Positions 1-15,095 of a stretch of DNA of 64,000 nt are shown piece after piece. Positions within the stretch are counted from its first letter, which is position 1; each line of letters begins with the position of its first letter. This DNA is from Panorpa germanica. Lineage: Eukaryota > Arthropoda > Insecta > Mecoptera > Panorpidae. The stretch is from contig CAVMBN010000163.1 in the NCBI GenBank assembly GCA_963678705.1, forward strand, positions 372,001 through 436,000. Direction: 5' to 3'. The notes beneath the pieces are model-generated. The model was given only the letters and a program-made list of their open reading frames with translations, was not told where the DNA came from and searched no databases. The position numbers and the translations under genes are program-made.

Positions 1-159
1 TAGATACAGTTCTGCAACAACGCGTCATCGTCAATAACATAGTTCTTTGCATGGAAGATCTGGAAGATTGATCCTGTAATACCATGCCGAAGCACAATAC
101 ACAACCATTGGCATAAATGCCCCCTTGTATAGTGTCGGCATAGTTGCCGAGTTTAAGCT

Positions 160-510
160 TCATTCCAGCCTTGTGACACGCGCAAGGTGTGTTACAAGTT
201 TATCATTCGTTGTTACAGTATTTGTTTTGTAGCTTTGTAGCTTCAAGAAACTACAGATTTTATATATAGCAGGTCGAGAACGGATTTCTAGTTGTTCTGT
301 ACTATTTGCACCGATAAGGATCACATTATCGTTGGCAAAACATACGTCTACACAACCTTTCGAGTGAGAAACACAGTTCTCGTCGAATACCATGTTCCAG
401 AGCTCAGGCCCCATTACAGATCGCTTAGGACAACCTTTAGATAGTTGCCTTTTCATGCAACGGTAATCGGTTTGTAAAATTAATGTTCGACAATGAAAAT
501 AGTTCTCCAT
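160..510 (-). pseudogene. R1-clade LINE reverse transcriptase core fragment (exemplar)
   Basis: A 116-codon open frame that matches the middle of a non-LTR retrotransposon reverse transcriptase. The block KGCPKRSVMGPELWNMVFD (residues 26-44) corresponds to the KGCPQGSVLGP...WN.VFD motif typical of R1 and Jockey LINEs. VCFANDNVILIG (56-67) sits at the catalytic YADD box. The box reads FAND, so one of the two metal-binding aspartates is replaced by asparagine and the enzyme would be dead. Motif A lies upstream on the same strand and the C-terminal part lies downstream in other frames, so this is a piece of a decayed ORF2 and not an independent gene. The same frame recurs in most array units at the same phase, often shortened to 110 codons. 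The recurrence is best explained by homogenisation of the array. Confidence 0.85.
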
Positions 511-668
511 AGCGCAGTAGACGTACCTAGAGGTTTTTGCCGGTCTAATTCTTTGAAGGTCACTTGCTTACCAGACATTATCAAAGGCACACTGAATTTC
601 TATATATATCTCATGTACATACTTGTACTTATGCCTACTTACTTTTTATTTGTTTGTTACCATTGAAT

Positions 669-678
669 GTTCATGAAC
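669..678. repeat. Conserved 10-bp palindrome GTTCATGAAC (exemplar)
   Basis: A perfect palindrome in the non-coding half of the unit, repeated at this phase in many units. Some copies carry GTTCATAAAC instead, and one unit has lost it in a 17-bp deletion near 61195. Confidence 0.7.
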
Positions 679-1043
679 GATCAATCACTATTTCCAAGAA
701 AGCCGCATATATTGTTCACTTAATCACTTATAACAATTATTACACTCTCTTTATTATTTAAAACACGCATTTATATAAACTTATTCTTATGTTTTAATAT
801 TATTTATAGTTAATGTTAATCGACTTACTTGATAGTGGGCGGCAACCTTTTGTCTTCCGTATATTTGTAGTGTTTATATGAGGTCTTTCTTATATAGCTC
901 TACAGATTTCTTGAATTTCTTAACCACTTGATGTTTTAGCACTAACACTAACCTAATTATAATCACATTTTTTTGTCTATCGCACTTATTAATGTCTTAT
1001 ATTAATCATCAAAATTACAATTTTGAGGTTATGTTTATAAGAC

Positions 1044-1055
1044 CGCGTGTACGCG
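1044..1055. repeat. GC-rich near-palindrome CGCGTGTACGCG (exemplar)
   Basis: Arms CGCGT and ACGCG around GT, set in otherwise very AT-rich sequence. It is present in essentially every unit, and the array resumes exactly at this motif (15569) on the right side of the island. Confidence 0.75.
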
Positions 1056-1152
1056 TAATGAAAAATTCGTTTTTAACACTGGTTTCCAACTGTCAAACTT
1101 TTGTAAAAACACTTTGTTTAGGGTAAATTAACACAAATTTAAAACAAACTTA

Positions 1153-1177
1153 AATACTTTTCGTTTGAAAAAGTATT
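1153..1177. repeat. Conserved hairpin AATACTTTT / AAAAGTATT (exemplar)
   Basis: A 9-bp perfect inverted repeat with a 7-nt loop (CGTTTGA), found at this phase in nearly all units. A few copies have substitutions in the loop or the right arm. Confidence 0.7.
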
Positions 1178-1370
1178 CATATAATTTATTTAATTTTTTT
1201 CCGTAATTAATTTCTCACTTTTAATCACTATTTTCACCTAAAGTAGCAGGAGCCGATCACACACATAGTAGATAGGAACCACTTGTGTTGTAAAGCAATA
1301 TTAACGTCCTTGTAAATAAATACGAAGGGCTTCCTTTTTGTATTAAGTCCCATCTGTCTTGCCAGAGCTT

Positions 1371-1384
1371 ATGCATATATGCAT
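1371..1384. repeat. Conserved 14-bp palindrome ATGCATATATGCAT (exemplar)
   Basis: A perfect 14-bp palindrome that recurs at this phase in most units, with occasional single-base variants such as ATGCATATATACAT. Confidence 0.7.
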
Positions 1385-1446
1385 TCATCTCTTTGGCAAT
1401 ATATTTGATATCGTCTCCAGACTTTTATCCTACAGCTGCATTAACT

Positions 1447-1752
1447 TTAAATCCTCGAAATTTGTTGCATTAATTTTAAATCATCAAAATTTGATTTTTT
1501 CAGTTCTAGCGTAATTTGTACTTGAGTAAGTGCATGAGTGATATTTAAATCTAAAGGAATTGTCTTCAAAATCACCTGCACCACTTCTGTAGATACAGTT
1601 CTGCAACAACGCGTCATCGTCAATAACATAGTTCTTTGCATGGAAGATCTGGAAGATTGATCCTGTAATACCATGCCGAAGCACAATACACAACCATTGG
1701 CATAAATTCCCCCTTGTATAGTGTCGGCATAGTTGCCGAGTTTAAGCTTCAT
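1447..1752 (-). pseudogene. R1-clade LINE ORF2 C-terminal fragment (exemplar)
   Basis: A 101-codon frame. Residues 39-70 carry the stretch MQRTMLLTMTRCCRTVSTEV followed by VQVILKTIPLDLNI. This matches the post-reverse-transcriptase region of R1-clade LINEs, where a (L)R..A.RTVST.ALQV..G..PLDL.I block is characteristic. A second frame over the same bases (1484-1693) holds the matching upstream piece (TLYKGAF...VVYCASA in better copies), so the gene is split by a frameshift. In six right-block units a 2-base insertion (CAACAAGTCGCG instead of CAACAACGCG) puts the two pieces into one frame of 82 codons. Confidence 0.8.
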
Positions 1753-2872
1753 TCCGTCCTTGTGACACGCGCAAGGTGTGTTACAAGTTTATCATTCGTT
1801 GTTACTGTATTTGTTTTGTAGATTTGTAGCTTCAAGAAACCACAGATTTTATATATAGCAGGTCGAGAACGGATTTCTAGTTGTTCTGTACTATTTGCAC
1901 CGATAAGGATCACATTATCGTTGGCAAAACATACGTCTACACAACCTTTCGAGTGAGAAACACAGTTCTCGTCGAATACCATGTTCCAGAGCTCAGGCCC
2001 CATTACAGATCGCTGAGGACAACCTTTAGATAGTTGCCTTTTCATGGAACGGTAATCGGTTTGTAAAATTATTGTTCGACAATAAAAATAGTTCTCCATA
2101 GCGCAGTAGACGTACCTAGAGGTTTTTGCCGGTCTAATTCTTTGCAGGTCACTTGGCCACCAGACATTATCAAAGGCACACTGAATTTCTATTAATATCT
2201 CATGTACATACTTGTACTTATGCCTACTTACTTACCATTTGTTTGTTACCATTAAATGTTCATGAACGATCAATCACTATTTCCAAGAAAACCGCATATA
2301 TTGTTCACTTAGTCACTTATAACAATTATTACACTCTCTTTATTATTTAAAACACGAATTTATATAAACTAATTTTTATGTTTTAATATTATTTATAGTT
2401 AATGTTAATCGACTTACTTGATAGTGGGCGGCAACCTTTTGTCTTCCGTATATTTGTAGTGTTTATATGAGGTCTTCCTTATATAGCTCTACAGATTTCT
2501 TAAATTTCTTAACCACTTGATGTTATAGCACTAACACTAACCTAATTATTATCACTTTTTTTGTCTATCGCACTTATTAATGTCTTATATCAAACATCAA
2601 AGTTACAATTTTGAGGTTATGTTTATAAGACCGCGTGTACGCGTAATGAATATTTCGTTTTTAACACTGGTTTCCAACTGTCAAACTTTTGTAAAAACAC
2701 TTTCTTTAGGGTAAATTAACACAAATTTAAAACAAACTTAAATACTTTTCGTTTGAAAAAGTATTCATATGATTTATTTAATTTTTTTCCGTAATTAATT
2801 TCTCACTTTTAATCACTTTTTTCACCTAAAGTAGCAGGAGCCGATCACACACATAGTAGATAGGAACCACTT

Positions 2873-3369
2873 GTGTTGTAAAGCAATATTAACGTCCTTG
2901 TAAACCAATACGTAGGTCTTCTTTTTTGTATTAAGTCCCATCTGTCTTGCCAGAGCTTATGCATATATGCATTCATCTCTTTGGCAATATATTTGATATC
3001 GTTTTTAGACTTTTATCCTACAGCAGCATTAACTTTAAATCCTCGAAATTTGTCGCATTAGTTAAAAATCATCAAAATTTGATTTTTTCAGTTCTAGCGT
3101 AATTTGTATTTGAGTAGGTGCATAAGTGATTTTTAAATCTAAATGAATTGTCTTAAATATCACCTGCACCACTTCTGTAGATACAGTTCTGCAACAACGC
3201 GTCATCGTCAATAACATAGTTCTTTGCATGGAAGATCTGAAAGATTGATCCTGTAATACCATGCCGAAGCACAATACACAACCATTGGCATAAATTCACC
3301 CTTGTATAGTGTCGGCATAGTTGCCGAGTTTAAGCTTCATTCCGTCCTTGTGACACGCGCAAGGTGTGT
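2873..3369 (-). repeat. Array unit L3 (partial, cut by the island)
   Basis: The first 497 bp of a unit, with a C-terminal LINE fragment at 3062-3274. The array stops at phase position about 494 from the landmark. Confidence 0.92.
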
Positions 3370-3769: not shown

Positions 3770-4107
3770 GAAAATAAGTGTGAATGAATACATTGTTTTA
3801 ATTGTAAAGTACTTAGATTTAACGGTCGTGTCGCGTTAAAATAAAGTGATTGTTCAAAAGCGGAGAAAGCAGCCTGCAGAACACAAAAAGTAAGTAAAAC
3901 CTAATATATTTATGTAATATTATTAGAAGAAGTACTAAGTCCTGATAGATAAATAAGACATCCACAATTAGCTCAGGTCATTCGATTTAAGGTGAGCCAG
4001 ATCACTATAAAAGAACCTATCGTTAGAGAGGATTGTAGAATCGCTCTCTTAAAATAAGTAACTACCCTTATATATAGATAGTAGATATAAGGGGTAGGGT
4101 TACATTT

Positions 4108-4123
4108 TGGTGTCAGGTGTGGG
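4108..4123 (+). promoter_or_regulatory. Primer-binding site, tRNA-Leu type
   Basis: TGGTGTCAGGTGTGGG lies three bases after the LTR end. TGG pairs with the CCA end of a tRNA, and the following TGTCAG is complementary to the CTGACA end typical of leucine tRNAs. The tRNA assignment is from general knowledge of tRNA-Leu 3' ends and was not searched. Confidence 0.65.
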
Positions 4124-5271
4124 GTGTGTTAAAAAAGAGGTCCTTTAAAAAAGGGATATTAAAAATGTGGGATATGTTAAAAAGGGGTATTAAAATTGTG
4201 GGATGTTGAAAAAGGCAGAAATTTGATTAATTGGGAAAAAGGGCATTAAATGGAAAATTTAATTTGAGAAAATAAAGGGAAATTTAAGTAACTGGGAAAT
4301 AGAAATAAGAATAAATTTTATCAATTGGTAAAAAAGGATAAATTTGAATAATTTAGAAAAAAGGATAAAATTGTATTAATTGGAAAAAGGAATATAGTTT
4401 ATTAATTGCAACTAGCAAATGCATATTAATAATTAGAAAAAGAAAAGATATCAGCATAATTAAAGAAAAGGGAAAATTTAAATAATTAAAGAACGGGGTA
4501 TTTTAAGTTTTTATAAAAGGGAATAAATTTAAGGAACTAAACAGTATATAATTTTTCTAAACCATAACTTATTAAAGTTGAATATTTTTGTTTTAACCGT
4601 AACTAAATAAGGGATATTTTTTTAAAATAGTTTTGTAATTCACAAGTAAAGTGGCACGTTTTTATAAAGTATAAAGTGTAGAGTCATTGTAACAGGAATA
4701 AAAAAAAAATTAATAGTTTTGTTTTATCGTAATTTTATTAAGTGATTGGAACAATGAAAAAAATATGTAACACAACTTATTTGAAATTATTTTGAATTTG
4801 TTTTTAGTTCATATGATAAATATTGAGTATTGCATAAAATAGTTTATTTTATTTTATTTCAATAATAATTAAAAAATAATTTTATCAATTTACAATTCGT
4901 TAATATACTTTTGTTAGAAATATTGTTTGTTATAATTTTTATTTTGGTTTTTATTGTTCTAAAACAGTCTATATTAAATATACTAGCATTTTGTTTGACT
5001 TACTTTAAAATAATTTGTTTGTTTATTTTTATGTATATAAACAACTAGACGTTCCATTTCGTTTCCAAAAGTAAATCACAAGAGTACAGTTTGTTAAAAT
5101 AACTAAGATAGTGTAAGGTATTGTTTACTTTTAAAAATAGATTATTTTTTCTCTCTTTCTTTTAACGACCAAGATTTTAAAATATTTGTAGTAGTTTATT
5201 GAAGCTTATTTAAGGTTTTTATTTGATTGAAATGATTATTTGATGATTATTTATTCCAAATAGTAAAAAAG
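4124..5271 (+). other. Long AT-rich leader before gag, no gene
   Basis: About 1.1 kb without a usable reading frame. The first 450 bp are strikingly purine-rich on the plus strand, with degenerate repeats of a GGGATATTAAAAA-like unit. The rest is AT-rich with poly-T tracts. No conserved ATG precedes gag. A consensus splice donor (GTAAGT, 3890-3895) in the LTR and an AG at about 5270 raise the possibility that this leader is an intron. Confidence 0.5.
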
Positions 5272-6380
5272 ACAACTAATGAAACAAACGTAGACATTGC
5301 CCCAGAAATTCCTAAATTAAAAGGATTAAATTATATACCATTCTTTGACGGTACAGGTAGCATAGCAACATTTTTAAATGCGGTGGATCAAATGGCAGAA
5401 TTGTTGGATTGGACCGATAAGGTGCAATCAGTTACCGTATTTGCAAAAGTGTCGCCTGATGTAGCTGAATATCTTTAGTCTAATTCGGAGGTTCAAAGTG
5501 AGAACCGTAGTTATATGAGTATTCGTAATGCATTATTGTCTAGATATAGCAGAAAAGGGCCATCTGCTCTAAGACAAGCAGAAATTGAGTTCGGGGGTTG
5601 TAAACAAAGACATGGCGAGACTGTTTATGAATTTTCCTAAAGGTTATGGGCATTAGGGTCAAAATGTGTACCAGAAGCAACTGATAAACAGCAAGAAAAG
5701 AAGCTTTCAGTTGAGTTACAAGTAGCCGTTTTAAAAAGGTTTAAAGAAGGGATATCGCAGAGATATTCTAAGTTTATTTGGGCCGCGGATCCCAAGAGTT
5801 TTAATAACGCCGTTGAAATTGCGGAAAGGGTAGAAACCGATGATTTAATCTCATCAAGGCAAGGCTAAGTAGCAGAGATTACTACAGGTGGAACTAACCG
5901 AATAAACAGAGCCGACCACTATTATGTAAATCGCGCATCTCAAAATAATCAATCGTTTATGCGACCTAGCAACTCGCGTAGCGGTTCACAAAGCCGAAGG
6001 TTTAATAATAGGCAAAGAGATGGAGTAAGGTGCTACAATTGTAACAGATTAGGACATTTTCAGAGAGACGTCCCGTTAAGGACGAAAGAGATCGATTTCA
6101 AAGAAATCGCAGTTAAAGTAGGTATGAAAACCGTAAGCAAAGTAATGACCGATTAGGGAGAGTTAGAGTCCTGCAAGTGTATAATGATAGCCGTAGTCCT
6201 GCGAGAAATCAGCGACAAGTTACTTTCCAAAGTAATAGAAATATTCGAAGCATCGAAAATAAGCCAAGCGAAGTTGAAGAAAGAAATTTACGCGCGTCCA
6301 ATAATTATGAAGATAATTTAAACGAATTGATGGCTTCACTAACTACCCGTAGAGGCCGAGACGTAGAAGCCATTCAATAA
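5272..6380 (+). pseudogene. gag: gag pseudogene
   Basis: Structural polyprotein that would form the retrotransposon particle and bind its RNA. One frame runs from about 5272 to 6156, with in-frame stops at 5476-5478 (TAG), 5638-5640 (TAA) and 5866-5868 (TAA). After a frameshift near 6120 it continues to 6380. The middle has the usual Ty3/gypsy gag look, with a GETVYEFS block followed by RLWALGSK. A basic, Ser/Arg-rich stretch precedes a zinc knuckle at 6031-6072 (C-x2-C-x4-H-x4), in which the last cysteine is replaced by valine. No ATG is present at the start. The tail contains RQVTFQ and an acidic segment. The next frame (pol) is in the -1 position relative to the tail frame, consistent with -1 frameshift expression, though no convincing slippery site was seen. 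Confidence 0.8.
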
Positions 6381-6391
6381 GTAAAAAGGGT

Positions 6392-8893
6392 AATCTTACA
6401 CCTCTGAATGTACCGGCATTTCATGATAATCAATGGTTTCCTAATTTAATAATTAATGGTCAAAATTGCAACGTTCTTATAGATAGTGGTGCAAGCGCCA
6501 GCCTACTAACTAGAGAATGTTAAAAAACGGAAAAAATTACAGAATCGCAAAATATTTTGCTAGATGCACAAAATAATAAAATACATACACTTGATAAAAG
6601 CAAATTAAAGTTAGATTTATTTGGGGATAATGTGACTTTTGATTTTGAAATTGTAGAAAATATGGAGAATTGGACAGGGATAATTGGGTTAGACTTTCTT
6701 CGTAAATTTGGGATAATTGTAGATTTTGGAAAGGGTATTTTAATATATAGAAACGTTATTTACGACAATAATCGTAATACTGTACATGATTTTCAGAGAG
6801 ATAATTTAAATATAAATAATATGATTAGAGAAAATGTAAATCGTATCGTTAGAAAGCAAAAGCGTATTATATCAAAGTCAGGGAAAATCGTTGAAAAGAA
6901 TAGAAATGGTAGAAATATAGGTTGTACTGAAACGGAAAATATTGACGAAAAAAGAGAAGTAAATAATCAGCGAATTAATAAGATAGGGCATGACTATAAA
7001 AGTTTTGATGATTTTCTAAAATGGAAAATTAGTAGATTTCCAACAAAAGAGACGTTGTGCAAAATAAATTTGAATAAGGGAGATTTGTTTAATGAATTTA
7101 GCAAGTATGCATTGGGTCATTGTATAGCCTCAGATTTACGTATGTCACAAGGAATAGCAGTTGAATTTAAAGAAAGATTTGGTAGAGTTGAGCAGCTTTT
7201 GAAACAGAAACAGAAAAAGGGAGGATTAGCTATATTAAAAGATGAAAATCGTTTTATATATTATTTAGTAACAAAGAAGAGGAGTAACGAGAAACCCCTC
7301 TACGCAGATTTATATTTGTCAATAATTAAATTAAGGGATCATATGTTAGAAAATAAAGTGAAATTTATTGCATTACCATACATAGCATGTGGGCTAGATA
7401 AATTAGATTTTAAAATAGTGAGTAAAATGATTGAATATATATTTTCGGAATGTAAAATAAAGATAGCATTCTATGATGGCGAATCGGAAAAAGATAAAAA
7501 AACATATATGAACTGTTTAATAAATAAAAATGATAAAGATTTAAAAGATAACATTGACGGAAAGAATATTAAAGTCCAAGAACAGGTAAAGAAATGGAAG
7601 AATTTACAAACAAAGTGGTTCAAAAGAATAAACACAGCTGAGCGAGTTGAAAAAATAAACATAAATATGAATAAAAAATCTGAAACCATTCGAAAGCGAA
7701 CAGACGCACATACGTGTAGTAGTAATCGGTGTAGTGTTAGGTTATTAGAGCAAGTAACTCTTCCGCCTCGATGTGAAATGAATGTTCATGCATTTCAAAA
7801 AGACATTAAGGAAGGTTATGGGATTTTTAACCCAGAATTGACCGCAGATAAAGTATTAGTAGCTAGAAGTGTAAATTTAATATGTAAGGGGCAAAAGAAT
7901 ATAAATATACCAATAAATACTAAGATAGGTATAATAGAGCCATATGATAACGAATATACTGAAACAGTTGAATTATTAAGAGAACACGTCCGACATAGAA
8001 TTAAAAATATTTTAATTGGTGCTGTACGATCAACAGAAGCAAACACAGAGATTAAAAATATAAAATTATTTGATGAAATAAGTTATAATAATTTAACAGC
8101 TAAAAAAGATAAAATTATACATGAAGTTACAAATCAGTGGAAGCAAAAAAGTCATAAGAATGAAGAGATAAATAAAACACAGAGAATAACGGAACTTTTT
8201 AGTAAAATAAAGTTAAATCATCTAAGTGCTAGAGACCAAAGTAAAATAGAAAATTTAATTTACGAATATCGCGACATATTCTTAACAGAAGGTCAAGAAT
8301 TGAAAACTACCTCGATAGTTAAACATAAGATAATAATTCAAGATGTTCCTCCTATAACTAAACAACCATATAGAGTTCCACACGCGCAGTTACAAGTACT
8401 GAGAGAACAGATAGATCAAATGCTTGAAGATGGCATAGAAGAACCATCAATGTGGTCCAGTAATGTTGTTCTTGTAAATAAGAAAGCAGAAAATAGGGAA
8501 AACAAGGTTAGAGTTTGCATAGATTACAGGGGTCTTAACGCAATAACAAAAAGAGATTACTTTCCATTACCACACTTAGTAGACACTCTTGATAAATTAG
8601 GCAAAGCAAGTTTATTTACCAAATTAGATTTAGCATCGGGATTTTGGCAAATTGAAATGGACGAAAAATCTAAAGAATTAACAGCATTTTCAACACCTGA
8701 TTTACACCTTCAATTTATTGTTATGCCGTTTGGGTTATTATCAGCTCCTGCTACATTTCAGAGACTTATGTATGCAGTGTTAGCAGGTTTAACCGGAGTA
8801 CATTGTTTAGTTTACCTAGATGATATTATAATATTTAGTAACGTTGATGTAGATTCGCATATCCAGAGAATTAAAGAGGTTTTCGATGCTTGA
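6392..8893 (+). pseudogene. pol: pol, part 1: protease, macrodomain, spacer, reverse transcriptase
   Basis: The frame opens near 6365 and is broken by one TAA at 6521-6523. It then runs open for 778 codons from 6557 to the stop at 8891. Aspartic protease: LIDSGAS around 6476-6496 holds the catalytic aspartate, and GIIGLDFL (residues 41-48 of the long frame) is the second conserved block. Residues 65-165 are a basic linker. Residues 168-307 are a TARG1-like macrodomain (separate entry). Residues 398-465 resemble the small beta-rich spacer seen before reverse transcriptase in many Ty3/gypsy polyproteins (LPPR..., LVARSVN..., IGIIEPYD). Reverse transcriptase spans residues 603-762, with VRVCIDYRGLN, FTKLDLASGFWQI, MPFGLLSAPATFQ and catalytic YLDD at 753-756 (8813-8824). 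A single-base frameshift near 8882 separates it from part 2. Except for the stop in protease, this part looks much less damaged than gag. Confidence 0.9.
7058..7477 (+). other. TARG1/OARD1-like macrodomain within pol
   Basis: Residues 168-307 of the long pol frame. Seen in order: KGDLF (174-178), ALGHC (185-189), RMSQGIAVEFKERFG (195-209), AILKDENRFIYYLVTKKR (225-242), then KPLY and a helix, ALPYIACGLDKL (272-283), and IKIAFYDG (301-308). This follows the human ADP-ribosyl hydrolase TARG1 (OARD1) motif by motif along nearly the whole 150-residue domain. TARG1 removes ADP-ribose from acidic residues using Lys84 and Asp125. The aligned positions here are Lys240 (7274-7276) and Asp281 (7397-7399), both kept. 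The usual GCGLD reads ACGLD. The domain lies in the open frame upstream of the spacer and reverse transcriptase, so it would be made as part of the pol polyprotein. Assignment to the family is from motif recognition; activity is inferred. Confidence 0.88.
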
Positions 8894-9849
8894 GAGAAGC
8901 AAGTTTGACATTGAAGCCTAGCAAATGTGAATTTATGAATAAAGAAACGCAATATCTTGGTCATATTATTTCTAGTGATGGTGTAAAGGCAGATCCAGAA
9001 AAAACAGAAGTAATTAGAAACTATCCGCGTCCGAAAACAGTTAAACAAATCCGATCTTTTATAGGGTTAGCTTCATTTTATAGACGATTTATAAAGAATT
9101 TTTTAGAAATATCATCAAGCCTAACAAAACTGACTTAAAGCAAAAATGAGACATTTATTTGGGGACCTGAACAAGAGAAAAGTTTTGAAGCATTAAAAAA
9201 CGCGTTATGTTTTGAGCCAGTTTTAGCTTACCCAGATTTTAGTCAAGAATTTATATTAGGTACAGATGCATTAGGAATCGCATTAGGCGCAATCCTAAGC
9301 CAAGTTCAGGATGGAGTAGAACGTCCTGTCGCATACGCTTCTCGTAAATTAAATAAATGTAAGAAAAATTACTCAACCACAGAAAGGGAATGTTTAGCGA
9401 TTTTATGGAGTTTATCACATTTTCGTACGTATTTATATGGTAAGAAATTTAAGATTCAAACAGATCACCGATCATTATGTTGGTTAATGACTATGAAAGA
9501 TCCAATGAAAAGTAAATTAGCACGGTGGGCTTTAACTTTAGCAGATTACGATTTTGATATTATTTATAGGCCAGGGGTAAAACACGGTAATGTTGATGCA
9601 TTAAGTAAAATAGAAACAGAAAGTATTGCAGCCGTAGCAGCTGAAGAAGTTCCATATTGGGATTGGTGTCAAATTAAAAATGAACAAGCTAGTGATTCCG
9701 ATATTAAACAATTAATAACGCAAACTAAGTATGGGGAGAAAAATGATTATTATTTAGATGATAGGGGTATACTGTATAAGAAAAGTAATGAAAAAACAGA
9801 TAGAAATGACTATGTAGTAGCACCAACACGAATGGTACCGAATATATAA
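8887..9849 (+). pseudogene. pol: pol, part 2: reverse transcriptase thumb, RNase H, start of integrase linker
   Basis: Continues part 1 after the frameshift at about 8882. The thumb and connection are clear: LKPSKCEF, YLGHIISSDGV, then RSFIGLASFYRRFIKNF. A TAA at 9136-9138 interrupts LTKLT/SKNE. RNase H follows, with FILGTDALGIALGAILSQ, STTERECLAI and QTDHRSL, which are the acidic active-site blocks. The tether VKHGNVDALSK near 9570-9608 is the usual end of RNase H in this group. The last 80 codons (to 9849) are the linker with GILYKK and VVAPTRM that normally precedes the integrase HHCC finger. The finger and everything after it are absent; the frame stops where the Polinton-type sequence takes over. 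Confidence 0.88.
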
Positions 9850-9876
9850 ATTATATCGTTATTATTTCCTCCTTAA

Positions 9877-10197
9877 ACAAAATTAAGTGCCTCAGCGTCT
9901 TCAACACCATATTCTCTAGAAAAATTGCAAAACGTTCGATCAAGACTTTTGCAGCGTACGTCCTCAGTTGGTTTACTAAATAATAAACGTTTTGGTAAAT
10001 ATTTCAAAAATCTTATTCCAAATTATATAACTTTCAATAAAAATCCAAAAGAATACATTTATTGGGATAATCTAAACGAATTAGTTGATAGACTAAAATT
10101 ACTAATTAGTTCAAAAAGGGCTGGCAATACATTACATGACAATGAAATTATTTCAATAGTTGAAGAATTAAAAAAAGCTAATATTATTATTATATAA
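9877..10197 (+). pseudogene. Small conserved ORF fragment of Polinton-type element
   Basis: An open frame of 106 codons between a TAA at 9874 and the stop at 10195-10197. It contains no ATG, so it is either the end of a longer or spliced gene or a truncated copy. The middle and end (NKNPKEYIYWDNLNELVDRL followed by a KLLIS...AGNTLHDNEIISIVEELK block) resemble a short protein family I associate with Polinton-like elements in invertebrates; its function is not known to me. The sequence is lysine- and asparagine-rich, with two probable helices at the C-terminus. It lies just upstream of the integrase remnant on the same strand. It could equally be a nucleic-acid-binding accessory protein of the element. 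Confidence 0.45.
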
Positions 10198-10253
10198 ATA
10201 CTTAAACACATTCCCTTCTTTTTCATTAATTTTTAACTACTCATGTAAGTAAC

Positions 10254-10451
10254 ATGACTATTAACAAATTTGGAGTACACATACATAAGAAAAAAATTAC
10301 TCGGCACGAAACAGTATCAAAAAATGATTTAATTATTATAGATAGACGTTTAAAAGCTGCAGAGAAATATATTAATGATGCTTATATTAATAACTTTCTA
10401 AACATTATTGAAGTAAATAAAAAAAATTGCAACATTAATTACAGAATTTAA
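10254..10451 (+). CDS. Unknown small protein, Polinton remnant
   Basis: A 65-codon frame with a true ATG start, 56 bp after the preceding ORF and on the same strand. The product is small and basic (start MTINKFGVHIHKKK), with a helical middle around DRRLKAAEKYINDAYINNF. I do not recognise the family. It has no membrane segment or signal peptide. Position and strand suggest it belongs with the integrase side of the element, but the frame is short enough to be fortuitous in AT-rich DNA. Confidence 0.35.
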   Translation: MTINKFGVHIHKKKITRHETVSKNDLIIIDRRLKAAEKYINDAYINNFLNIIEVNKKNCNINYRI

Positions 10452-10485
10452 AACAAAACATAGTTTAGATATTAGTTCTTGATAA

Positions 10486-10617
10486 ATTTCTCAACTAGAT
10501 ATATCTGTATATCTAGTTGAGAAAGTTTTACAGAAAAAAGGAAAAAAAGTTTTTGTAAAGTGGTTAGGTTTAGATAAATCTCATAACAGTTGGATAGATG
10601 CTAAAAATATTGTATAA
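10486..10617 (+). pseudogene. Integrase C-terminal chromodomain-like fragment
   Basis: The last 43 codons of a gene, opening right after a TAA at 10483 and ending with TAA at 10615-10617. VEKVLQ leads into KVFVKWLGLDKSHNSWIDAK, the signature of the chromodomain-like tail found on integrases of Polinton/Maverick elements, where it is thought to help choose chromatin targets. The catalytic core and zinc finger are not found upstream, so this is a remnant. A perfect hairpin covers its first codons (see 10487-10524). Confidence 0.7.
10487..10524. repeat. Perfect 17-bp inverted repeat, 4-nt loop
   Basis: TTTCTCAACTAGATATA is followed by TCTG and then its exact reverse complement. The right arm overlaps the integrase codons LVEK. 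A perfect stem of this length is unlikely by chance in AT-rich DNA and may mark a fold-back copying event or a transcript structure. Confidence 0.8.
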
Positions 10618-10681
10618 CATTTTAAATAAATAAATCTACTGGTTATTATAAATATGTATTTATTTTACAATAAAAATATAC

Positions 10682-13600
10682 TTATAACAATAAATCGCTA
10701 TCACTTAAATTATCGAAACCCCAAGGCAAAGTATCTGTACTGTTTTTTATAAAACAATGTTTATCATAAAAAGGACTTAAAGCAATTTTTGTTTGTTTAA
10801 TGGAGTACACATTATGCAATTTTGAAACTATTCCTCTCTGAGTACAATTTTTTTTATTAAAAGTTCTCAAACAATTTTCATAATCTTCAAAAGAAATATG
10901 GTTTCTTACTACACTTGTCTTTATTCCTTTTATTTTTTTTATAATGTCATTATTATTAACCTTCATTGTATACATTTTCGATCTTAGTCCTATAAAGTGA
11001 GTCATAATTTTACCGTTATTTTCATCCTTCATTAAACCCAATACCTTTTTATTTACACGGGGAATATTATATTGATTGTTTTCTTTATAATCACTTGTAT
11101 CAAACTTACTTATATCGCGTTTTATAGTTCATAAATATCTGATGTAATAATTTCATAAATTAACGAGTCAGTATCAATATATAATAACTTTAAATTATTA
11201 TTAAAAAATTCTTTGTGCATATAATTATAATGAAAATCATACATTACTGTTTTAGATAAATCTAATATTGAAAAGCCAACATATATAGGTTTATTAAATG
11301 TAATATTAGGTTTTAAAAGTTCAATAGCTACAACATTTTTATTAAAAATTGTTCGGCTATAAAAATTAGGTGGTGCTATTAAACTTTTTACTCCATATCG
11401 ACCACCCCAATTTGTTTTTAATTTTATATCACGATGTTTTCTAACATTTCCATTGTCTTACCAAATACACTATTATTCATTAATTTATACAAGTTTTTTT
11501 CAAAATCATTGGTAGCCATTTTTCTTTTTTCTGTATTTAAATCGATATAGTTTTTTAGCCACGGTGATTGACTAAATTTTAAAACTCGATGTATTTTTGA
11601 TACTTGCATTCCTAAATGTATACATTGCTTTAAATTACTATAATGAATTATATATTTCTCCTTATCATATAAAGTAGTTAAAAGTTTTTTATGTTTACTT
11701 CCTGGTGCAATACAATGCTCAGGACAAAGCGGTTAATCTTTATGGAGATTATGTAAACTTTGAGGATAAGTTAAATCTACTTCTAAAATGTTACCAGTAT
11801 TGCTAGTTTCTGACAAATTGCATATAGTCCAATATTTCCTGGTTGTTTAACCATTTAATATTTCCATATGGTAGGAATTGAGACATTGCATGACCGTATA
11901 AGTTATTAACATCGAAATACATTAGATATTTAGAAGGTAATTCAGGTTTATACTTGTCAGTCATATATTTGTTATTGGCCTCTGCATATCTGTTTGAACA
12001 TTGACTTATACCACCTCTGATACCCTTCTCTATAAATAGCCACATATTTATATCAGTAAACAATTCAAGTTTAATTTTTGTAATTTTAGACATAAAATCC
12101 CATGCTAAGCTAGGAGTAGAAACATAATGCACTGGATCTAATTTATACTTGTCTAAACAATTATCTCGAAAATTTTCAAATATGTCACAAAGTAATAACA
12201 CATCGGTTTTTAAGTACAAATCGGAATATTCACCAAGTGTTTTGATATGAAATGTACTCCATACATCTTGTGCTTTTTTAATAAATTAAAAAAATTATCC
12301 TGAGGTGGTAAAGCTGTCTCATTTAACTTTTCCCAGGAATTTATATAATCATAAGGAAATACACTTTTTTTACTTAACATACTAAATTTTTCATTGCTTA
12401 ACATGTTAAATTCTGATTTTAAAATTTTAAGTTTATTATTTGGTAAATATGATGCCAAATTATTTAAAGAACTAGCCATAAATCGATATGAATCAATAAA
12501 TATTAATGAAATATTAGTTCCATAAACATATTTCGTAAATGAAATATATTTTTATTTATTAATTGATAGCAAAGAAGTTCTTCCACTTATTCCAGTAGCT
12601 AAATCAATTATTATAAAATGTGAATCATAAGATGATAAATTGTGAAAAATTATTGGAATCACATAACTTTCATTATAATTTAAATTACATTCATTATGAG
12701 CTGGTCCTCTATAATTTTCTGTTAAATGACAATGATCTCGAACACGGTCTTGTTAGAACGGTTTTTCACATATATGACAATTTATTGCATTTAAATATTC
12801 CATCTTTTGTTGAGCCGTCAATGTTTTCATTAATAATACATTTTTTATTATATCCTCAACATTATAAGCAATCTCTTTTAATTCATTTACAAACAACTAA
12901 ACGCAATCTTCACCACGATAACTATTATAATAAGATTTAGAGTCATCATATGAATATTTTACATAATATCCAACGCTATGTGCAATATGTGTTTGATATA
13001 CCCCCTTGGTTTCAATATTTGTCACATTACTATCCAATATACTTTCAAAGTCTGCATAAATAACACATGCATTTCTAATGTTTCTCTTAAAGTTTTTAAA
13101 CTCAAGTATATTAGAATTTTCAACTGGCATTATCGGTTTAACTGGTCTGTGTCCTAATCTAACACAGTCTTGTAAATGTTCCTTAAACTTTCACTCATCT
13201 CTAAAGAAATGTAAACATCGATCACAAATAAATTTCTTACAATTTGTTTTTGAAAGTAGATTACTAACAAGTCTTGATAAATTCTTTATCCAACAAAAAT
13301 GAAATTATATTTTATTGTCGCATTCCTCATTATTACTTTCAACAACATCTTGTTCATCCTCTTCTTCTTCTTCTTCTTCTTCTTCTTCAAATTCATAATC
13401 ACTTTGAATCATTAATAAATGAATATGTTTACTTTCATATATTTTACTAACATATACAGGAATAGTTACAAATGTTTTCTTGCTCTTTTTTAAAATATAC
13501 ACATTGATTGATATATTATTTAGTTTTTCAAATTTTAAAACTTGTGATAACGTCATTGGAAATTTAATACCATTTAAATTAAAACAATTTATATATTTCT

Positions 13601-14444
13601 TATAAGATGATACTCTGTCGCCATGAATTTTTGATGGATAAAGTGCTGATAATACTGCCCATACAAAACATTTATCATCTTCATTCTGAACATTTATTAC
13701 AGCCTTTTTTCGTCTTATTTCAACTAGTAAGTCAATAAATGATGAACAATAAAATGGAACAAATTGATTTATATTTACTATCATATTTACTATTTTACAT
13801 AGAGCCCATCCACTTTGATTTTCTTGAAAAGTTTCTAAATATTTTAATACAACATCAATAACATTTTCCTTATACTAATGTTTTAATTCTGTTGATACAA
13901 AAATTTCATTATTTTTAGTATTAAAATAATTGTATTCAAATATATGTTCTTCTTCTTTAGCTGATGGTAAAACAAATTCACCACAAAAAATTACATTAAC
14001 TTTTAAAGCACTATGTTTTTTAAGAGCATTTTTAATTCTAGATGCAAACATATAAAATGCATCATTTAAAAATTGTAATGGATCAATGTGACTTAAATTA
14101 ATTAACACTCCTGTTCTAACACGTCCTTTAAATGATGAATTTATTGCCTGCCATTTATTTCGATCACTACGTTTTGAAGTATTTATAGTTCCTCTTCCAA
14201 TTTTTTCTTTATTTTCTAACAATGTTTGAAAATATTTTAATACACTTATATTGCTTTCAACACTTCGTTTATATCCAATTGAATAAGTATTTTTATTATT
14301 ATTTTTTAATAACTTATTTAATAATCTTATATTAATTTTATTATAATCACACCACTTTTTCGACTGAATACTTGAATAATTTGAACTATTTAAGTGTACA
14401 ATAATTTTTCTCATATGCTTAATAATTTTACAACCGCTATCCAT
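10682..14444 (-). pseudogene. polB: Protein-primed family B DNA polymerase pseudogene (Polinton type)
   Basis: Replicative polymerase of a Polinton/Maverick-like element, about 1,250 codons including breaks. The N-terminal region (13305-14444) has INLSHIDPLQFLNDAF and KKAVINVQNEDDKCFVWAVL. Next come a C2H2-like finger (CDRC...H near 13230), exonuclease motif I YADFE (13044-13058), a Cys/His cluster (CHICEKPF, then DHCHLT), exonuclease motif II around FHNLSSYD (12615-12647) and motif III YLKTD (12202-12216). Polymerase motif A is DVNNLYG (11893-11913), motif [11 protein letters not shown] (11457-11486) and motif C YIDTDS (11164-11181); the usual ending IALSPF...LPWG follows. In-frame stops lie at 13875, 13305, 13191, 12897, 12753 and 12552, all in one frame, plus 11733 in a later frame. 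Frameshifts fall near 12275 (in an A-run), 11820, 11448 and 11125. All three stop codons occur, so this is decay and not a recoded gene. Confidence 0.92.
13361..13388. repeat. (CTT)n microsatellite
   Basis: Nine uninterrupted CTT/TTC triplets. On the minus strand they encode a run of glutamates in the N-terminal part of the polymerase pseudogene, where the family has no such run. Confidence 0.9.
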
Positions 14445-14551
14445 TGTAACTTATATATTTCAGTTTCAAAATCAAAATAAATCACAATTGTTTTTAAAAG
14501 TTCATTTATTTATATAATTTTACATAAAAAAAATATGCAATAATCACTATG

Positions 14552-14908
14552 TTATACTTTTACAATTTCGTCATCAGAGTCTAACACTTCTACAATTTCA
14601 TCGTCAGAGTCTAATATTTCAATAACTTCATTATCATCGTCAAATAATTCTATGATTTCCACATCAGAATCTTCTTCCTGTATTTTAATTTCTTCGTGAC
14701 CTATTATTATTTAATCAGCATAACTCTCTATAATTTTCTCGTATGTCTTCTTTTCTTCATCCGTCATATCCTTTGGATCACAGTCATCTATATTAAAATC
14801 GTCAGTTATATCTTGCACATAATATCTATCTTCACTGTCAATGCCGACGCGTATATCCCCCGAATCCAATAACCATGTTACGCCTGGAATATTCTTAAAT
14901 CTGTTCAT
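14552..14908 (-). pseudogene. Unknown acidic small gene split by one stop
   Basis: An ATG-started frame of 65 codons (14711-14908, start MNRFKNIPGVTWLLDSG) ends in a TAA at 14711-14713. The same frame then stays open for another 52 codons to a second stop at 14552-14554. The second part is extremely acidic and holds a tandem pair of a DSDDEIVEVL-like unit near its end, so both parts were probably one protein of about 118 residues. It is the first gene read inward from the right end of the Polinton remnant and lies 107 bp upstream of the polymerase on the same strand. I do not recognise the family. An acidic tail of this kind can bind basic proteins, but no function should be assumed. Confidence 0.45.
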
Positions 14909-15095
14909 ACTATTAAACTTTAGCTTGAACTAAGAAAACATTACTCTGTAATTACATCTCATTATCATGTCTATTTAAATGACATTTATGCATTAATTTA
15001 CCATATCTACCACTCCATATTAAATACCACCTCCGACAACAGAATCTCCTTACATATGCATACATGCATAAAAATGCATAAGTGGGAATATATAT

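What the first reader, a model, noticed from the sequence alone, without database searches (positions are those of the whole stretch)
7058..7477. A TARG1/OARD1-like macrodomain embedded in the pol of a Ty3/gypsy retrotransposon
Seen: between the protease and reverse transcriptase, inside one 778-codon open frame, lies a domain that follows TARG1 motif by motif (KGDLF, ALGHC, QGIAVEFK, IYYLVTKKR, GLDKL). The residues equivalent to catalytic Lys84 and Asp125 are present as Lys240 and Asp281. Known: TARG1 strips ADP-ribose from acidic residues, and several positive-strand RNA viruses use unrelated macrodomains against host ADP-ribosylation. Inference: this element lineage captured a hydrolase, perhaps from its host, to counter PARP-based defence or to protect its particles or cDNA. 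I am not aware of this arrangement being established for LTR retrotransposons.
Basis: partly seen in the sequence, partly recalled or inferred. Interest (0 to 1): 0.92.

Follow-up and report, generated by a model that had tools for sequence, protein, structure and literature searches.

The report
ADP-ribose eraser inside jumping genes
Several families of retrotransposons in one probable insect genome carry, inside their replication polyprotein, a domain closely related to an enzyme that removes ADP-ribose tags, which suggests, but does not yet prove, that such tagging is something these elements must undo.

Summary
Window 7058-7477 encodes a TARG1/OARD1-class macrodomain (sequence E 7.8e-37; modelled fold TM 0.90 to TARG1) between protease and reverse transcriptase of a Ty3/gypsy pol, with the Lys84/Asp125 equivalents kept. 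The window copy is decayed and truncated, but not a one-off: a search of its own genome gave 151 matches. The domain lies in three reverse-transcriptase groups and two pol positions: protease-RT (F1, F7, F9) and RNase H-integrase (F2, F4, F5, F6, F8/F10; F6 with a Baculo_F-like envelope gene). Four database pols carry it after integrase. Of copies found by their RT, 63 of 65 F2 and 32 of 36 F1 have it nearby. F8 against F10 shows purifying selection (dN/dS 0.14). Six relatives of F5, one copy each, lack it between RNase H and integrase. Five families and four database pols keep the catalytic pair; F7, F8/F10 and F9 have not. Element versions have replaced a glycine that the tabulated cellular TARG1 domains keep. 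The likeliest role is removing ADP-ribose that the host puts on element proteins or cDNA; no activity has been shown. Macro-domain frames are reported in fish endogenous retroviruses; my searches found none inside a Ty3/gypsy pol.

The parts
7058..7477 (+). TARG1/OARD1-class macrodomain inside the pol frame (family F1 of this report); Lys84/Asp125 equivalents present
   Evidence: phmmer vs PDB E 7.8e-37; AlphaFold2 model and Foldseek; residue table
6524..8893 (+). Open frame of 789 codons: end of protease, linker, macrodomain, linker, start of RT
6353..6720 (+). Retroviral-type aspartic protease (IDSGAS at about 6480-6500; stop at 6521-6523); the far end is by eye
   Evidence: weak Pfam matches for 6353-6520: gag-asp_proteas 6.3e-4 and Asp_protease_2 1.3e-3, below cut-off; sequence
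8354..8893 (+). Reverse transcriptase, first part; frame change between 8875 and 8893
   Evidence: Pfam RVT_1 E 2.3e-25
8875..9849 (+). Rest of RT and RNase H (one stop at about 9136), cut off at about 9850; no integrase follows
   Evidence: Pfam RT_RNaseH 6.7e-40
5236..6156 (+). Decayed gag with a CCHC zinc knuckle; three in-frame stops
   Evidence: zf-CCHC 4.4e-5
4105..4124 (+). Inferred primer-binding site after the 5' LTR (TTTTGGTGTCAGGTGTGGGG); no second LTR was found, so the LTR start is not defined
   Evidence: sequence; a similar stretch follows the 5' LTR of F2 copies L031, L032, L043
9850..14930 (.). Remnant of a second element that cuts off the retrotransposon (Polinton-like by recall; DNA polymerase B on -, chromodomain on +); outer bounds approximate
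   Evidence: DNA_pol_B_2 4.1e-11 at 11806-12285 and Chromo 6.5e-7 at 10486-10614

Best explanation
The window holds a dead copy of a Ty3/gypsy family (F1) whose Pol carries a TARG1-class ADP-ribosyl hydrolase domain between protease and RT. Related domains sit in several other Ty3/gypsy families of the same genome and elsewhere, between RNase H and integrase or after integrase. Proposed working: the domain is made as part of Pol in a fixed ratio to RT, is carried into the particle with RT or integrase, and removes ADP-ribose that host transferases attach to element proteins (acidic residues) or to its cDNA or RNA, so that reverse transcription and integration go on. Shown here: homology, fold, kept catalytic pair in five families and four database pols, repeated placement in Pol, spread with the elements, purifying selection in the pair of families that could be measured well. 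Inferred: packaging, hydrolysis, the target, and that host ADP-ribosylation is the pressure.
For: TARG1 is the best PDB match by sequence for F1, F5, F6, F7 and F8 (F2, F4, F9, F10 not run). Lys84 and Asp125 are kept in F1, F2, F4, F5, F6 and P0006-P0009, two of 12 positions (of 137) invariant across these nine, host and human (one copy per family). Of RT rows listed, 63 of 65 F2 rows have the macrodomain downstream and 32 of 36 F1 rows upstream. Eight listed F1 copies have open frames of 1636-1638 aa; F2 and F5 copies have LTR pairs identical over 391 (L031, part of the LTR), 281 and 279 bases (L036, L047). dN/dS: F8-F10 0.138 (0.065-0.279) at dS 0.40; F6 0.19 and F5 0.15 with wide intervals; F1 macro 0.30 among eight copies with frames of 1288-1638 aa, against 0.52 and 0.36 in the two linkers. 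Three pol positions in three RT groups. TARG1 removes ADP-ribose from Glu/Asp, from nucleic-acid phosphate ends and from thymidine in DNA (PMC9411070, passages).
Against: F7 has lost both catalytic residues, F9 has Glu for Asp125, and F8/F10 have lost Asp125 and the glycine loops, yet F8/F10 is still constrained and RT rows of the F10 type are very numerous, so hydrolysis is not needed everywhere. One of the two F6 copies has Asn for Lys84. The element versions lack Gly41; F1 also lacks Gly121, F5 has Glu-Phe-Asp in place of Gly-Cys-Gly, F2 has His for Leu124; these may weaken binding or catalysis. G1-G6, relatives of F5 with long open frames, do without the domain between RNase H and integrase. 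Within F1, RT is more constrained (0.06) than the macrodomain (0.30). F2 pairs give 0.40-0.53 and one F7 pair 0.94, with intervals reaching above 1. No assay.
Confidence: 0.55

Rival explanations
1. Reader, not eraser: the domain binds ADP-ribose on chromatin or at broken DNA and steers or tethers the integration complex, as chromodomains are thought to do at the end of chromovirus integrase (comparison recalled).
For: In P0006-P0009 it follows integrase, and in F2, F5, F6, F8 and F10 it lies before integrase (F4 by its separate frames). F8/F10 lost Asp125 but keep the fold under selection. DarG keeps only the lysine and is active; SCO6735 has neither residue and is active (PMC9411070 passages), so residue loss does not exclude binding.
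Against: In F1, F7 and F9 it sits next to protease, far from integrase. Lys84 and Asp125 together are kept in nine families or pols, more than binding alone should require. F8/F10 and F5 lost glycines of the phosphate loop that a reader would be expected to need.
Confidence: 0.2
2. Structural or regulatory part of Pol: the fold was captured and kept as a spacer or interaction surface, with ADP-ribose chemistry irrelevant or only ancestral.
For: Catalytic residues lost in F7, and Asp125 lost in F8/F10 and F9, while the frame stays open; family F11 rows match only the C-terminal half.
Against: Catalytic pair kept in F1, F2, F4, F5, F6 and P0006-P0009 at 29-50% identity to host and human TARG1; the same class of domain is found at three positions, which a mere spacer would not explain.
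Confidence: 0.17
3. Small-molecule role: the domain hydrolyses O-acetyl-ADP-ribose or another ADP-ribose derivative in the particle or cytoplasm.
For: TARG1 also acts on O-acetyl-ADP-ribose (PMC9411070 passage; PDB molecule name).
Against: No reason known to me for a retroelement to need it; the host already has TARG1.
Confidence: 0.05
4. One-off insertion or chimeric assembly.
For: The window copy is broken and lies in satellite DNA.
Against: 55 of 150 listed matches are 90% or more identical to it, on many contigs, eight with frames of 1636-1638 aa; other families and database pols carry the domain too.
Confidence: 0.01

Closest known systems
TARG1 / OARD1 / C6orf130 (ALC1-like macrodomain class)
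   Same: Best sequence and fold match; Lys84/Asp125 pair; KGDLF, TKK, GLD motifs
   Different: Embedded in a retroelement polyprotein; Gly41 replaced in the element versions, Gly121 replaced in F1; activity untested
Macro-domain reading frames in epsilon-like endogenous retroviruses of ray-finned fish (Basta et al. 2009, as cited in PMC4977317)
   Same: A macrodomain carried by an LTR retroelement
   Different: Described in the review passage as additional reading frames in vertebrate ERVs; here fused into pol of Ty3/gypsy elements. I did not read Basta et al. nor check the class of the fish macrodomain
Viral macrodomains (coronavirus nsp3 Mac1, alphavirus nsP3)
   Same: Macrodomain in a replicating parasite's polyprotein; thought to oppose host ADP-ribosylation
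   Different: Farther in fold and sequence (IBV, VEEV and chikungunya rows: TM 0.65-0.71, 9-17% identity, against 0.90 and 47% for TARG1); class difference recalled; other genome type
Accessory domains of LTR retrotransposons (integrase chromodomain, second RNase H, dUTPase, DNA methylase)
   Same: Extra domain captured into a retroelement polyprotein
   Different: None of these is an ADP-ribose domain (chromodomain and methylase from PMC6338049 passages; the others recalled)
Host TARG1 gene of this genome (L042) and beetle proteins P0010, P0011, P0013, P0014, P0016
   Same: Same domain: beetle domains are 44-59% identical to the host's, and 42-50% to F1 and F2
   Different: Host gene has introns and a second, diverged macrodomain close by; the first domains keep Gly41

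Membership tests
TARG1-class macrodomain | Sequence closer to TARG1 than to other macrodomains | tested here: met
   Only TARG1 chains match at E<=1 for the window domain; best for F5, F6, F7, F8 too
TARG1-class macrodomain | Macrodomain fold | tested here: met
   Model pTM 0.81, TM 0.90 to 4j5r; built with only 4 sequences
TARG1-class macrodomain | Catalytic Lys84 and Asp125 | tested here: met
   Met in the window family F1, in F2, F4, F5, F6 (one of two F6 copies has Asn84) and P0006-P0009; not met in F7 (Arg, Cys), nor for Asp125 in F8/F10 and F9
TARG1-class macrodomain | Glycines 41 and 121 of the ligand loops | tested here: not met
   Window family has Ser and Ala; other element families vary. 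I treat these as conserved, not as proven essential
TARG1-class macrodomain | ADP-ribosyl hydrolase activity | not testable with these tools
   Needs purified protein
Ty3/gypsy (Metaviridae) pol | Order protease, RT, RNase H, integrase | tested here: met
   F2, F5, F6, F7, F9 frames and P0006-P0009 show RT-RNase H-integrase; protease matches in F2 and F7, weak in F5. In F1, RT-RNase H-integrase in L049 and protease motif-macro-RT in one frame in 10 fetched copies. The window copy itself lacks integrase
Ty3/gypsy (Metaviridae) pol | Long terminal repeats | tested here: inconclusive
   LTR pairs in F2, F5, F7 loci; in the window no second LTR was found, and no F1 copy was fetched with both LTRs
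Errantivirus-like (insect endogenous retrovirus) | Envelope gene downstream of pol | tested here: met
   Only for F6: Baculo_F E 6.8e-61 in L038. Not for the window family

The most novel reading that the evidence does not exclude
De-ADP-ribosylation is a recurrent activity of Ty3/gypsy Pol: TARG1-class domains were put into pol several times, at three positions, or once and then moved between lineages (the element versions share the loss of Gly41), because host ADP-ribosylation of element proteins or cDNA is a general barrier to LTR retroelements in insects; some lineages later reduced the domain to a non-catalytic part.
Probability: 0.45. Interest if true: 0.92.

Novelty: new variant of a known kind. 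Interest (0 to 1): 0.84.

Why it matters
If the domain is active, it makes a question testable that has been asked mostly of RNA viruses: does host ADP-ribosylation restrain elements that replicate by reverse transcription? A catalytic domain kept in several element families names the modification as a possible point of conflict, and families that seem to lack it (G1-G6) in the same genome are natural controls.

Tried and rejected
Origin by assembly error or single insertion: rejected. Origin from this host's own TARG1: not supported; F1 is 49% and F2 45% identical to the host domain, about as close as either is to human TARG1 (47% and 50%), and trees leave them unresolved. Single clade of element domains: not rejected, AU p 0.365, the free tree 3.35 log units better. 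A hidden macrodomain in the RNase H-integrase interval of G1-G6: no (best E 0.069, in G4; hhalign probability 0.2%). Viral contigs as a source of relatives: no element found, but an RT control query (F6) also found none, so that collection says nothing. The first two protein searches found only five TARG1-like proteins and no pol. The first dN/dS set (29 loci and the window: macro 0.32, protease end 0.40, linkers 0.53 and 0.52, RT 0.20) used loci picked by macro similarity, which favours low values; I therefore added a split of 21 of these 30 by frame length and between-copy pairs of other families. A Fisher test on Gly41 run is not used: the rows are related and one count was typed wrongly. 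The macro tree left out F7, F8 and F10 (long branches), and one search left out one duplicate each of F1 and F2 as well; F9 was in none of the macro trees. F10 macro copy number was sought seven times and never answered, so I give none; only one F10 copy (L055) was checked for the domain. The count '47 of 47' first made for F2 took only the top rows; the full list gives 63 of 65. The split of 36 F1 rows from F9 rows was made by eye (match starts at residue 3 or later); the four F1 rows without a listed macrodomain are C6:16327453, C180:14470, C5:19686675 and C243:34187.

Full report
WHAT IS IN THE WINDOW. The window is C179:372001-436000 of a 464 Mb assembly of 249 contigs. Bases 1-3369 and 15569-64000 are a satellite of about 1587 bases per unit. 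The stretch between holds a decayed Ty3/gypsy copy. Gag (5236-6156) has three in-frame stops. The protease starts at 6353 with a stop at 6521, and the open frame 6524-8893 runs through the end of protease, the macrodomain and the start of RT. A frame change follows between 8875 and 8893, and RNase H goes on to 9849, where a remnant of a DNA-polymerase-B element cuts it off. No integrase and no second LTR were found. So this copy does not work, and the case rests on the family.

THE DOMAIN. The 140 residues match human TARG1 at E 7.8e-37. Pfam's Macro model scores 18.7 bits against a cut-off of 22, so standard annotation would miss it. The model made from four sequences has mean pLDDT 82.7; the best eight of its PDB matches are all TARG1 chains. 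TARG1 Gly41 and Gly121, in the loops that hold the ligand, are Ser and Ala here.

IT RECURS IN THE SAME GENOME. A search with the domain gave 151 matches from 587 candidates, of which only 150 were scored; 150 rows are listed. Some rows are pieces of one copy and one is an exon of the host gene. Fifty-five rows are 90% or more identical (family F1); of the first 53 of these, 7 have a stop inside the match. Eight F1 rows have open frames of 1636-1638 aa. One row at 63% (F3, C2:13165892) is a heavily broken relative (L033). Around other rows I fetched 20 stretches and located domains with Pfam and with profiles built here. F1, F7 and F9 have protease-macro-RT. F2, F4, F5, F6, F8 and F10 have RNase H-macro-integrase. 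F6 has an envelope-like frame (Baculo_F, E 6.8e-61) after pol. Of 65 F2 RT rows 63 have a listed macrodomain 0.3-3 kb downstream, and of 36 F1 RT rows 32 have it upstream; for F7 only 5 of the 16 rows tried were linked, since the F1 query barely reaches that degenerate form. LTR pairs are identical over 391 bases (L031, F2), 281 and 279 bases (L036, L047, F5), 99.3-99.8% alike in L035, L039 and L044, and 97.7-98.8% in L032, L040, L041, L043 and L048; in L034, L037, L045, L049 and L050 no pair was seen within the fetched stretch. Several of these elements moved recently.

IT RECURS ELSEWHERE. The last protein search (F2 pol, residues 740-1085) gave 13 proteins. Four (P0006-P0009) are Ty3/gypsy pols with the domain after integrase; one is filed under a fungus assembly, the others have no name, so their hosts are unknown. 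P0017 and P0018 have integrase and no macrodomain. Six are long host-type proteins, five from named insects (two checked as beetles; the other three beetles by recall), with the TARG1 domain and, in four of the six, a second weak one. One (P0015) is an RNA-virus polyprotein.

WHERE IT IS MISSING. In six families related to F5, G1-G6 (60-76% RT identity to F5), the RNase H-integrase interval has no macrodomain (6 of 6, one copy each). F5 has the HSQ..GIPI-type linker seen in G1-G3, G5 and G6, with the macrodomain placed in front of it. Only this interval was fetched for G1-G6; other positions were not looked at. No row listed (F5 macro query, best 150 of 568) had a frame length typical of G1-G6.

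TREES. RT: F4, F5, F6, F8, F10 group at 96/98; F2 groups with P0006-P0009 at 100/99; F1, F7, F9 are unresolved but nearest each other by identity. Thus within the F2 group the domain sits at two different places. Macrodomain: F4+F5+F6 100/99, P0006-P0009 95/89, F1, F2 and the host-type domains unresolved. One clade of the nine element versions tested is not rejected (p 0.365). Either several captures, or one capture and later moves between pols, would fit. The residue at TARG1 position 41 favours a shared history or a shared demand: Gly in 11 of 11 first or only cellular TARG1 domains looked at (human, host, P0001-P0004, P0010, P0011, P0013, P0014, P0016; P0012 and P0005 not tabulated) and in the RNA virus; not Gly in F1, F2, F4, F5, F6, F8, F10 and P0006-P0009 (11 of 11; Ser in eight, Thr, Asn, Phe); F7 has a gap there and F9 Leu. 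Two diverged second domains of cellular proteins are exceptions: Thr in the host, Ser in P0001, the latter read by eye.

SELECTION. F8 against F10: macrodomain dN/dS 0.138 (bootstrap 0.065-0.279), RT 0.025, at dS 0.4-0.5. F6 0.19, F5 0.15, F2 0.40 and 0.53, F7 0.94 and 0.12, all with wide intervals. Among eight F1 copies with frames of 1288-1638 aa: macro 0.30, protease end 0.15, RT 0.06, linkers 0.52 and 0.36; among 13 short-frame copies: macro 0.39, others 0.59-0.90. The counts are pairwise and not independent. The domain is constrained, less than RT.

FUNCTION. TARG1 is thought to work by the Lys84/Asp125 pair and removes ADP-ribose from acidic residues, nucleic-acid phosphate ends and thymidine in DNA; DarG has only the lysine, SCO6735 neither, and both are active (PMC9411070, passages; PMC5087735, passages). 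Five families here and four database pols keep the pair. An eraser made as part of Pol and packaged with RT or integrase is my first choice. The integrase-side positions and the constrained F8/F10, which lack Asp125, make a reader or a structural part real rivals.

NOVELTY. Ten paper searches (open-licence PubMed Central only; listings of the best hits seen) showed no report of a macrodomain in a Ty3/gypsy pol. A review passage says that some epsilon-like fish ERVs carry additional frames for CNPase or macro domain proteins, citing Basta et al. 2009, which I did not read (PMC4977317, passages). Passages of a paper on accessory domains (PMC6338049) name chromodomain, exonuclease, helicase and methylase, not a macrodomain; term searches of PMC8672886, PMC12992720 and PMC12440569 gave no macrodomain. 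Hence a new variant of a known kind, accessory-domain capture by LTR retroelements.

LIMITS. One genome, unnamed; insect origin is inferred from the Baculo_F-like envelope and from beetle proteins with a similar pair of macrodomains. Only the best 150 candidates are scored per search, so family sizes are lower bounds. F1 was not seen with both LTRs.

Noticed in passing
window 15569-64000 (and 1-3369): Long array of a satellite with units of about 1587 bases, each with an inner 29-base doublet; no Rfam or tRNA match. The retrotransposon and the second element lie inside it.
   Followed up: partly
window 9850-14930: Remnant with DNA polymerase B (minus strand) and a chromodomain; looks like a broken Polinton/Maverick (label recalled).
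   Followed up: partly
P0015, residues 2053-2190 of 2280: An RNA-virus polyprotein (RNA helicase PF00910, RdRp PF00680) carries a TARG1-class macrodomain near its end, with Gly41 and both catalytic residues kept.
   Followed up: no
L042:3743-5349 (C19:719500-728500): Host TARG1 gene: three coding exons for the domain, followed by a strongly diverged second macrodomain; proteins P0011, P0012, P0014, P0016 also have a second weak one.
   Followed up: partly
L055 and the 1652-aa frames (e.g. C1:18940932): F10, a very numerous Ty3/gypsy family with many RT rows of equal score and long frames; the one copy read (L055) carries a macrodomain without Asp125. Copies are probably recent.
   Followed up: partly
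C5:12830019, C10:1406092, C147:125600: A set of rows (F11) matches only the C-terminal half of the F5-type macrodomain (roughly 63-72% identity), many inside long frames.
   Followed up: no
L001, L002 (the window copy), L003, L004, L005, L008, L010, L016, L030: Several F1 copies, one with a 1571-aa frame, start their open frame at the same distance before the macrodomain, so a stop inside protease seems to be shared by a subfamily that still spread.
   Followed up: no
L051-L053 (viral contigs): Three viral contigs encode a TARG1-like domain (29-36% identity); not examined further.
   Followed up: no
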